Below, piece after piece: positions 39,949 through 42,900 of a stretch of 64,000 nucleotides of DNA. Location: NCBI GenBank assembly GCA_903813345.2, contig CAIIXF020000007.1, positions 18,215,564 to 18,279,563 of the forward strand, written 5' to 3'. This DNA comes from Owenia fusiformis (taxonomy: Eukaryota > Annelida > Polychaeta > Sabellida > Oweniidae). Position 1 is the stretch's first letter, and every line of letters starts with the position of its first letter. The position numbers and the translations under genes are program-made. The notes below the pieces were generated by a model that was not told where the DNA came from, ran no database searches, and saw nothing but the letters and a program-made list of their open reading frames with translations.

Positions 39949-42900
39949 ATGGCAGATGCGAAAAAAAATCAGGAGCACGAAGGTTTAGACGATGATCACC
40001 TATCCGGTGATGCTGATTGTGAAGATGACGATGTAGAAAAAGTAACGTAAGTACATATTTTATATGTTACCTGAGATTCAGGAACATCGGTGACGTATTT
40101 AGACGAGAAAATCAAAAAGACTAGAATCCAGTTGTCATGATTTTTCCATTTTTTTTTAAAACATGGAAGTGCATAGATTTCACAAATCTGAGTGATGCCA
40201 CTTATATAACCGATCAAGATCGTTTTGTAGTAGAAGAATAATTCAGAAGATGCGTCACTAAATTGGAAAATTTCAAAAAAAGTGACCACCTTTCAAAATA
40301 TTGGTACTTAGCCCATGCCAGGACTATAGTCCTGAGCATGTCTCAATCTTTTGCCTGTACGATTAAATTATGGGAGAATTTTCTACACCTCTTACACTTA
40401 AGATACATACTTCAATAAATTCCTGGGTATTTTAGCATTCTTTTCGTGTAGTTGAATCCTCAATTATCTGGGTTTACACCGGCAGAACGCGAACTTTTTT
40501 TTTTCTTTTCATCGAGAGAGATTCCATCACTTTTCAAGATGGTGGTTTGGATTTTTTATACTACGATTAAAAACGAAAATTTCTTAGTTCTGCCTTTCAA
40601 TATTCTTGGATAGTTAACTCAAAGAGACATTCTGTATCCAGAATATAAAATCCACTCTTTATGTGATTTAATACTTATTTAGTGATGGGGAGCTGACCAG
40701 TACCAAGAAAAAGAACAAAAAGAAGAAGAAGCGAAGTAAGGACCCACAGACTAGTGATTCAGACAGCAAGGATCTAGAGTCATTGCAGAATAACGTCGCT
40801 GCTAAGGATGGTGTCAAAGATGTTGCAGAAGTGAGTTATAATTTGTTAAATTGAGAGTAAAGCCAATACTGCAGCTAGCTGTGATTTTAAGATACATGTA
40901 TATATATTTCCATAACACATCATTACTGTTCAGAACTTTTGGATGGTACGTATTAACTGTCACAGTTCTATCACTTGACTACTTCCCCAGCATTGTTATT
41001 TGGCTAAGTTGTCACTTTTTGGCTCCAAAGTAAACACCATACTTTAAAGTGTTTTTTCCAAGACTTGGAGAATCCTGTTTGACACCATACTCCCAAATCA
41101 CAGCATTGTTTTTTCATCCTACTTTACATTTCAGTTGCCTATATCAAAGCTGCAAGACCTGCAAAAAGCTATGGAGTTGATGCAGCTGCAACAGGGTGCT
41201 CCAAAATCACAGCATTGTTTTTTCATTCTACTTTACCTTTCAGTTGCCTGTATCAAAGCTGCAAGACCTGCAAAAAGCTATGGAGTTGATGCAGCTGCAA
41301 CAGGGTGCTCCAAAATCACAGCATTGTTTTTTCATTCTACTTTACGTTTCAGTTGCCTATATCAAAGCTGCAAGACCTGCAAAAAGCTATGGAGTTGATG
41401 CAGCTGCAACAGGGTGCTCCAAAATCACAGCATTGTTTTTTCATTCTTCTTTACATTTCAGTTGCCTATATCAAAGCTCCAAGACCTGCAAAAAGCTATG
41501 GAGTTGATGCAGCTGCAACAGGGTGCTCCAAAATCACAGCATTGTTTTTTCATTCTACTTTACATTTCAGTTGCCTATATCAAAGCTCCAAGACCTGCAA
41601 AAAGCTATGGAGTTGATGCAGCTGCAACAGGGTGCTCCAAAATCACAGCATTGTTTTTTCATTCTACTTTACATTTCAGTTGCCTATATCAAAGCTCCAA
41701 GACCTGCAAAAAGCTATGGAGTTGATGCAGCTGCAACAGGGTGCTCCAAAATCACAGCATTGTTTTTTCATTCTACTTTACGTTTCAGTTGCCTATATCA
41801 AAGCTGCAAGACCTGCAAAAAGCTATGGAGTTGATGCAGCTGCAACAGGGTGCTCCAAAATCTATGGAGGAGGCACAGAGGAAACAATACCAGTTCTGGG
41901 ACACACAACCAGTCCCTAAATTATGTAAGTCCAGTCCTCACTGAAATAAATGCCATGCCATATTTAAAAAAGATATATCTGTAACTCAGTAAATTTAATT
42001 ATGTATGTAGTGAATCCAGGAAATGATGAAAAGATATTAATTGGTGCCAGGGTCCATCATAGGAATTTCAGACAGTTGGTCAAAACTGAATTACGAACCA
42101 GTTGTCAATTATTATTATTTAGCTCAAAATAAAGGTCTGGTTTTTAAAGTTTTTTTTATAAAATAACATGATGTATATACTGTACATCTCTATTATAGCT
42201 GACAAAGTAACAGAGCACACTGCAATAGAGCCATCGAAAAGCAAAGCTGAGGTCCGCCAGGAATCATACTCTCTACCCCCAGGCTTCAAATGGGATACCT
42301 TGAATATTAATGACCCTTTAGTGGTAAGTAACGATTTTTAGAATTCTGTTATTTCTCTTTCACTGTGGAAAAACTTAACAAGAGAGTTATGCACAATTTA
42401 AAGGTCTGCGTTTTCTTGAGGGGGAGGATGGAAGGGCGGTGTGGAATATGACATGCAGTTTTGTCCCAGTGGGTCCTTTTCTAGGAAATGGCGCATCATT
42501 TGAGTGGGAAGTTCAGTTTAGAAGTTCATAAATAGCTTGATTTTCAGATTCAATGCTCATACAAGTTTATATCAAAAAGATTTCATTCAAAAATGGACAA
42601 CAAGTCTATTAGGGTGCATAGTTGTTTTTAATGAAAAACTGTTAAAAGGCATCACAACAAGGTCACTGTGACCTTCTTTTAATTTTAATGTAAACCAAGG
42701 AAAAATCATTTCTTGCAATTTCTAAATTGTTCTAATCTCAGCCTCTTCAATGGGACACACTGTGCATGTATTTATTCATATTTAAATTAATTATTTAATA
42801 TTTGCTTTATTTACTTGTAAAATACATTGTTCAGTTAAGAGTTATACACTTTATTGAATTAGAGTAACAAACAGCATATGTTTTACATTTCAGCTGAAAG

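What the first reader, a model, noticed from the sequence alone, without database searches (positions are those of the whole stretch)
41092..41924. Seven tandem copies of an acceptor plus half an exon in NMT
A 109-bp unit containing the pyrimidine tract, the AG and the first 75-76 bases of NMT exon 3 is repeated seven times, and only the last copy continues into a complete exon. Acceptors 1-5 read into a stop in the third unit; acceptor 6 shifts the frame through the real exon and stops at about 41919. The spliceosome must therefore pick the seventh of seven near-identical acceptors each time, or the gene tolerates much waste. The repeat joint shows AAATC microhomology between intron and exon. 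A functional gene carrying a VNTR of its own splice site is a natural test of acceptor choice and could tune expression by copy number.
Basis: partly seen in the sequence, partly recalled or inferred. Interest (0 to 1): 0.87.

Follow-up and report, generated by a model that had tools for sequence, protein, structure and literature searches.

The report
Seven-copy splice-site array in worm gene
In the marine worm Owenia fusiformis the gene for N-myristoyltransferase carries seven tandem copies of one splice site together with the first half of its exon, and only the last copy leads into the whole exon, so the cell likely has to choose that one each time; the same kind of array sits at other exon edges of this and other worm genes and resembles the 'mirage' repeats described in lancelets.

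Summary
Seven 109-bp units (41090-41852) each hold 45 intron bases (pyrimidine tract, AG) and 64 exon bases; only unit 7 continues into the full 136-base exon 3 of an intact NMT gene of Owenia fusiformis. Units 3 and 7 are identical, so the acceptor's own sequence cannot explain the choice. Acceptors 1-6 all lead to early stops; the annotated Owenia protein uses the seventh. It is not a lone curiosity: the same gene has two donor-site arrays (five donors each, after exons 6 and 12) and a probable decayed acceptor copy. In eight chaperonin-family genes sampled from the same genome I read seven more exon-edge arrays in five genes, including nine acceptors in CCT8 and 25 donors in CCT2. The kind is known: 'mirage' minisatellites of amphioxus, where RT-PCR suggests regular splicing is not disturbed and array length differs between haplotypes. 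My open-access searches listed no annelid case. Most likely mechanism (inferred): exon definition picks the site nearest the exon's other end, so such duplications are tolerated and lengthen the intron. Copy-number polymorphism, leakage into wrong sites and any tuning of expression are untested here.

The parts
39949..47813 (+). NMT gene, 13 coding exons, intact 496-aa frame
   Evidence: every intron GT-AG
40683..40830 (+). NMT exon 2; its donor (GTGAGT) faces the seven acceptors
41090..41852 (+). acceptor array: 7 x 109 bp, 45 intron bases + 64 exon bases per unit
41135..41198 (+). copy 1 of the exon-3 start (acceptor 1; exon would be 790 nt, stop)
41244..41307 (+). copy 2 of the exon-3 start (acceptor 2; 681 nt, stop)
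41353..41416 (+). copy 3 of the exon-3 start (acceptor 3; 572 nt, stop); unit identical to unit 7
41462..41525 (+). copy 4 of the exon-3 start (acceptor 4; 463 nt, stop)
41571..41634 (+). copy 5 of the exon-3 start (acceptor 5; 354 nt, stop)
41680..41743 (+). copy 6 of the exon-3 start (acceptor 6; 245 nt, frame shift, stop 41917-41919)
41789..41924 (+). complete exon 3, reached from acceptor 7 only; donor GTAAGT follows
   Evidence: junction present in annotated protein P0001
42823..42863 (+). probable decayed copy of the exon-5 acceptor and exon start (real exon 5 begins 42894)
   Evidence: alignment score 34, 0 of 5000 shuffles reach it (highest 32); 24 exon edges were tried; a version with other query and target limits was weaker (score 29, 8 of 3000)
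44119..44235 (+). NMT exon 6, productive donor at 44236
44192..44490 (+). donor array: 55-bp units (44 exon bases + GTAAGTAACAA), donors at 44236, 44291, 44346, 44397, 44449; all but the first read CAG TAA stop
47100..47237 (+). NMT exon 12, productive donor at 47238
47223..47758 (+). donor array: 132-bp units with about 15 exon bases + GTAAGC, donors at 47238, 47319, 47451, 47583, 47719; all but the first lose the C-terminal residues and stop

Best explanation
The array has the structure of a 'mirage' minisatellite: a 109-bp tandem duplication across the start of NMT exon 3 present seven times, of which only the last copy joins the intact exon, so splicing likely uses that last acceptor because exon definition favours the site nearest the exon's single donor. 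Shown by the sequence: the seven complete-looking acceptors, the identity of units 3 and 7, the stops behind acceptors 1-6, the two further donor arrays in the same gene, and the same kind of array in other genes. Shown by annotation only: the exon-proximal site is the one used. Inferred: a duplication that covers one exon edge always leaves the exon-proximal copy attached to the whole exon, so a cell that recognises exons as units (acceptor and donor 136 nt apart, rather than 245-790 nt) would tolerate such copies; the copies then lengthen the intron and can spread by unequal exchange. Predicted: the purine-rich stretch GGAGGAGGCACAGAGGAAAC, present only behind copy 7, would help mark the real exon, and products of the other sites would mostly be removed by nonsense-mediated decay.
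For: Array geometry, 0-4 differences per unit pair, identical units 3 and 7. Each unit has its own pyrimidine tract (22-23 of 30 bases), a yTnAy match at -19 and no AG between -31 and the acceptor AG. One NMT locus found with PF01233 and one locus found for the unit. Annotated Owenia proteins use the exon-proximal site at 7 of 7 arrays checked: three in NMT (P0001), one in CCT8 (P0121), three in CCT2 (P0241); the other 3 of the 10 arrays were not checked this way. The published Owenia annotation used RNA-seq junctions besides homology and ab initio prediction (PMC9977687, passages). Recurrence: seven exon-edge arrays read in five of eight Cpn60/TCP1-family genes. Literature: minigenes with two identical strong donors and 365-nt flanking introns used the upstream, exon-proximal donor exclusively (PMC9225289); globin pre-mRNAs with a duplicated acceptor spliced, very inefficiently, only to the distal one (PMC5389562); [quoted passage not shown]
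Against: No RNA reads were examined; annotation could favour the open frame by construction. PMC9225289 found that for acceptors at least 20 nt apart the upstream one is generally preferred, and for acceptors of similar strength exon definition reduced that preference, which does not by itself predict the seventh of seven. Intron 6 would be only 65 nt long from its last donor, a length at which intron definition would favour the wrong donor. In CCT2 one array keeps the frame open (96-bp unit), so there leakage would give insertions of 32 residues or multiples, not stops.
Confidence: 0.78

Rival explanations
1. Leaky choice that matters: a sizeable part of the transcripts takes acceptors 1-6 (and the extra donors of exons 6 and 12), is destroyed by nonsense-mediated decay, and array length sets NMT output.
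For: The extra acceptors are near-identical to the real one, and all extra sites lead to early stops in NMT (6 acceptors, 4 + 4 donors); for acceptors the upstream one is often preferred (PMC9225289).
Against: NMT and CCT subunits are essential in other animals (recalled), so strong waste should be costly, yet such arrays turned up in NMT and in five of eight chaperonin-family genes; amphioxus RT-PCR suggested no disturbance (PMC3087553).
Confidence: 0.17
2. Assembly artefact: the assembler multiplied a single exon edge.
For: Only one assembly was seen; the amphioxus draft genome mis-assembled one such array (PMC3087553, legend of a supplementary file).
Against: Copies carry differences. If this is the published assembly, as the equal length of contig C11 and of the contig of P0121 suggests, it rests on PacBio reads with N50 above 25 kb, far longer than the 763-bp array, with linked short reads for polishing and optical maps for scaffolding (PMC9977687). 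Arrays of different unit length recur at ten exon edges in six genes.
Confidence: 0.03
3. A step towards a new intron or a regulated poison exon: copies inside the array are used as exons.
For: Intron gain from mirages has been proposed for amphioxus globins (PMC3087553); each NMT unit has GT in its exon part.
Against: By eye I see only a weak donor in the unit (CAGG|GTGCTC) and no AGGT (unit sequence), and the annotated protein holds no such exon.
Confidence: 0.02

Closest known systems
Mirage minisatellites of amphioxus (Adh3, globins BflGb6 and BflGb9, troponin C, PGBD5); PMC3087553 and PMC3902484, abstract and passages or passages read
   Same: Tandem repeats that span an exon-intron boundary; acceptor or donor side; many copies carry AG or GT signals; the real exon stays intact at one end of the array.
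   Different: An annelid instead of a lancelet; three arrays plus a probable decayed copy in a single gene; up to 25 donor copies (CCT2); no RT-PCR, allele or somatic data here.
Laboratory duplications of a splice site (Reed and Maniatis 1986, not read, as cited in PMC9225289; duplicated globin acceptors in PMC5389562, passages)
   Same: Near-identical or identical competing sites that differ in position.
   Different: Natural, seven copies instead of two, in a conserved gene, with exon sequence behind every copy.
Intron gain by tandem genomic duplication (PMC4974935, search listing only)
   Same: Tandem duplication inside a gene that copies splice signals.
   Different: No new intron is seen here; an old intron gets longer.

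Membership tests
amphioxus-type mirage minisatellite | tandem repeats span an exon-intron boundary | tested here: met
   NMT exon 3 start, exon 6 end, exon 12 end
amphioxus-type mirage minisatellite | both acceptor and donor edges can be affected | tested here: met
   one acceptor and two donor arrays in NMT; three acceptor and four donor arrays among the seven in other genes
amphioxus-type mirage minisatellite | unit length and copy number in the minisatellite range, copies much alike | tested here: met
   units 28-154 bp, 2-25 copies; NMT exon-3 array 98% matches, but the CCT3-like and one CCT2 array only 76-79%
amphioxus-type mirage minisatellite | regular splicing is not disturbed (RT-PCR) | not testable with these tools
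   only annotated proteins: 7 of 7 arrays checked use the exon-proximal site, 3 arrays not checked
amphioxus-type mirage minisatellite | array length differs between haplotypes or cells | not testable with these tools
   one haploid assembly; no second place of the NMT unit was returned
intron gain by tandem duplication | new intron bounded by the duplicated AGGT sites | tested here: not met
   no such junction in the annotated protein; the unit has no AGGT (sequence)
NAGNAG or close tandem acceptors | alternative AGs within about 12 nt sharing one branch point (recalled definition) | tested here: not met
   spacing 109 nt, each with its own tract and branch-point candidate

The most novel reading that the evidence does not exclude
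Exon-edge arrays are a genome-wide, ongoing mode of intron growth in Owenia: thousands of genes carry splice-site arrays whose length changes fast, and because each copy is a full competitor, array length is a natural allelic series that tunes how much correct mRNA essential genes make.
Probability: 0.22. Interest if true: 0.85.

Novelty: new member of a known kind. Interest (0 to 1): 0.62.

Why it matters
How the splicing machinery chooses among identical sites has been studied largely with two-copy constructs (recalled, and as in the two papers read). Here one genome offers natural tests with 2 to 25 similar acceptors or donors in conserved housekeeping genes, where position must do much of the work and most wrong choices are readable as stops or insertions. 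It also carries a phenomenon reported, in the papers I could read, mainly from lancelets into an annelid, and points to tandem duplication of exon edges as a way in which introns may grow: in NMT the extra copies make up about 1.3 of 6.4 kb of intron (654 + 213 + 481 of 6374 bases).

Tried and rejected
Targeting of arrays to splice sites: rejected as unproven. In NMT three arrays placed at random would cover 4.9 exon boundaries on average, against 3 seen (that each covers exactly one boundary happened in 0.5% of placements, which selection against damage could explain). In the chaperonin-family loci 9 of 18 arrays overlap an exon-match edge against 4.8 expected, P 0.014, but two of the nine (L038 3174-3233, L039 1557-1602) look low-complexity and were not read as splice-site arrays; no P was computed for seven. 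A decayed copy behind the exon-10 donor: not significant (88 of 3000 shuffles). Pseudogene: rejected, intact frame and one locus. Regulated in-frame isoforms through the extra NMT sites: rejected, every extra site gives a stop. Skipping exon 3 breaks the frame; skipping exon 6 keeps it. Kinase (PF00069), myosin (PF00063) and proteasome (PF00227) families for further sampling: not completed.

Full report
What is there. Between 41090 and 41852 the window holds seven 109-bp units in perfect register. Each unit is the last 45 bases of NMT intron 2 and the first 64 bases of exon 3. Because the next unit begins with CTCCAAAATC, which is also how exon 3 goes on, copies 1-6 match the exon for 74 bases (apart from the single-base differences listed). 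Only the seventh copy continues into a whole exon (41789-41924, 136 bases). The joint lies in a near-match of ten bases between intron (CTCCCAAATC) and exon (CTCCAAAATC), which fits an origin by slippage or microhomology; that step is inferred. Unit 3 equals unit 7 and unit 5 equals unit 6; the most diverged pairs differ at 4 of 109 bases.

Which gene and organism. The gene has 13 coding exons, all with GT-AG introns, and an intact 496-aa frame. The best solved relative is an NMT2 (9ndp, E 5e-213). The frame is 100% identical over its whole length to P0001, a 502-aa protein annotated in Owenia fusiformis, in which Pfam finds both NMT domains; Owenia is an annelid (PMC9977687). The assembly behind the window has 498 Mb, and PF01233 matches in it at this locus only (3 matches). 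The contig length given for P0001 (39,792,004) differs from that of the window's contig (39,776,147), so P0001 may come from another version of the assembly; for P0121 and P0241 the length (37,288,061) equals that of contig C11.

What each acceptor would do. Exon 3 would be 790, 681, 572, 463, 354, 245 or 136 nt long. Acceptors 1-5 stop after 169 codons, acceptor 6 after 161, acceptor 7 gives 496. Every unit has its own pyrimidine tract, a yTnAy match 19 bases before the exon and an AG-free stretch, so the acceptors need not share a branch point (no branch point was mapped). As units 3 and 7 are identical, position and context are the only differences left between those two acceptors.

Two more arrays in the same gene. 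After exon 6 a 55-bp unit (44 exon bases plus GTAAGTAACAA) gives donors at 44236, 44291, 44346, 44397 and 44449, the last two in decayed units; any but the first adds CAG TAA, a stop. After exon 12 a 132-bp unit with about 15 exon bases gives donors at 47238, 47319, 47451, 47583 and 47719; any but the first loses the last residues and stops; for donor 47319 that stop lies 36 nt before the last junction and may escape decay. From the last donor, introns 6 and 12 would be only 65 and 74 nt long, instead of 278 and 555, so these arrays probably lengthened short introns (inferred). A fourth, decayed copy, of the exon-5 acceptor, is probable at 42823-42863 (0 of 5000 shuffles; 24 edges tried; with other limits one search gave 8 of 3000).

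How common it is in this genome. From the rows of one family search (PF00118, 60 matches) I fetched nine loci that I take as eight genes, 62,209 bp with 49 of the exon matches, plus the adjoining L036. Two genes (C10, and CCT2 on C11) were fetched only in part, and further matches (C222, C12, C3, a second place on C8, C7 at 13.4 Mb, the last exon of CCT2) not at all. They were picked for having several exon matches, before any array was seen. Seven arrays over an exon edge were read base by base: CCT8, nine acceptors, 83/89-bp units, L035+L036; a CCT4-like gene, two acceptors, 86 bp, L033; a CCT1-like gene, two donors, 154 bp, L037; a CCT3-like gene, 5.3 copies of 48 bp with mostly decayed donors, L038; CCT2 three times, L040: four acceptors at 96 bp, 25 donors at 53 bp in blocks of 20 and 5, and 16.6 copies of a 28-bp unit with 11 GTRAGT sites. 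The names CCT1, CCT3 and CCT4 are my reading from recall; CCT8 (theta) and CCT2 (beta) are the names given to P0121 and P0241. Three genes (L031, L032, L034) had none at the matched exons. Twenty stretches of 10 kb on the window's chromosome (two of them flanking the window) hold 31 minisatellite arrays of period 20 or more and 2.5 copies or more, so such arrays are frequent in general. In the chaperonin-family loci 9 of 18 arrays overlap an exon-match edge against 4.8 by rotation, P 0.014, two of the nine doubtful; in NMT 3 boundaries are covered against 4.9 expected. So there is no clear sign of avoidance and only a weak sign of excess. No other animal genome was available for comparison.

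How it most likely works. A tandem duplication over one exon edge leaves, by geometry, one copy joined to the complete exon, always the one nearest the exon's other end. If exons are recognised as units, that copy makes the shortest exon and would win. PMC9225289 (abstract and passages) reports such an exon-centric rule when flanking introns are long, and its minigenes with two identical strong donors chose the upstream one exclusively; for acceptors the same paper saw a reduced upstream preference, which leaves a real gap in the argument. PMC5389562 (passages) reports duplicated globin acceptors spliced, very inefficiently, only at the distal site. Annotated proteins use the exon-proximal site at 7 of 7 arrays checked in three genes (the other three arrays were not checked); the published annotation drew on RNA-seq junctions, transcript assemblies, homology and ab initio prediction (PMC9977687, passages), so this is support and not proof. 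One result cuts against a simple rule that wrong choices are always destroyed: the CCT2 acceptor array has a 96-bp unit and an open frame, so upstream acceptors would add 32, 64 or 96 residues; the annotated protein has none.

What is known. Tandem repeats over exon-intron boundaries were named mirages in amphioxus (PMC3087553, abstract and passages; PMC3902484, passages). There, acceptor and donor edges are affected, repeat units of 10 to 160 bp occur, RT-PCR suggests that splicing is regular, one globin has 6 and 3 units on two haplotypes, and somatic instability was seen at Adh3; the original 2002 paper is not held and is known to me through these two. [quoted passage not shown] Searches for the phenomenon in general, in annelids or in Owenia showed no annelid case in the rows listed; two lists were cut (25 of 127, 20 of 30), most rows were judged by title and start of abstract, and the library is open-access only. 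I therefore call it a new member of a known kind, in a new phylum as far as I could see and seemingly abundant.

What is not shown. No RNA, no second individual, no raw reads. Whether array length varies, whether wrong sites are used at all, and whether NMT output depends on it remain open.

Noticed in passing
4576-13461: A direct repeat, 1733 bases identical at 4576-6308 and 11729-13461, flanks a 1797-aa frame with zinc-knuckle, reverse-transcriptase-like and integrase-like stretches (my reading, no scan): likely a young LTR retrotransposon.
   Followed up: partly
37185-38722 and L034:6231-7535: The same roughly 136/148-bp minisatellite family (87-90% identical) lies upstream of NMT and in the fetched Cpn60/TCP1-family stretch L034 about 1.2 Mb away on the same chromosome: a dispersed satellite.
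   Followed up: partly
52240-53243: Nineteen copies of a 52-bp unit, 94% matches.
   Followed up: no
43295-44077: Minus-strand open frame of 260 aa inside NMT intron 5 with a cysteine-rich stretch that reads like the end of a non-LTR retrotransposon (my reading); no Pfam match.
   Followed up: partly
32951-33577: Minus-strand frame with a SMAD MH1 domain (E 5e-28).
   Followed up: no
46931-47090: A 21-26-bp repeat runs up to within ten bases of the exon-12 acceptor, so a further splice site of NMT is bordered by an array on its intron side only.
   Followed up: partly
L040:646-1045: CCT2 acceptor array with a 96-bp unit whose frame stays open through all four copies, so upstream acceptors would give 32-aa tandem insertions.
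   Followed up: yes
G000 contig C222: A small contig with Cpn60/TCP1 exon matches might be a second haplotype or a further gene; it could show allelic array lengths but could not be fetched.
   Followed up: no
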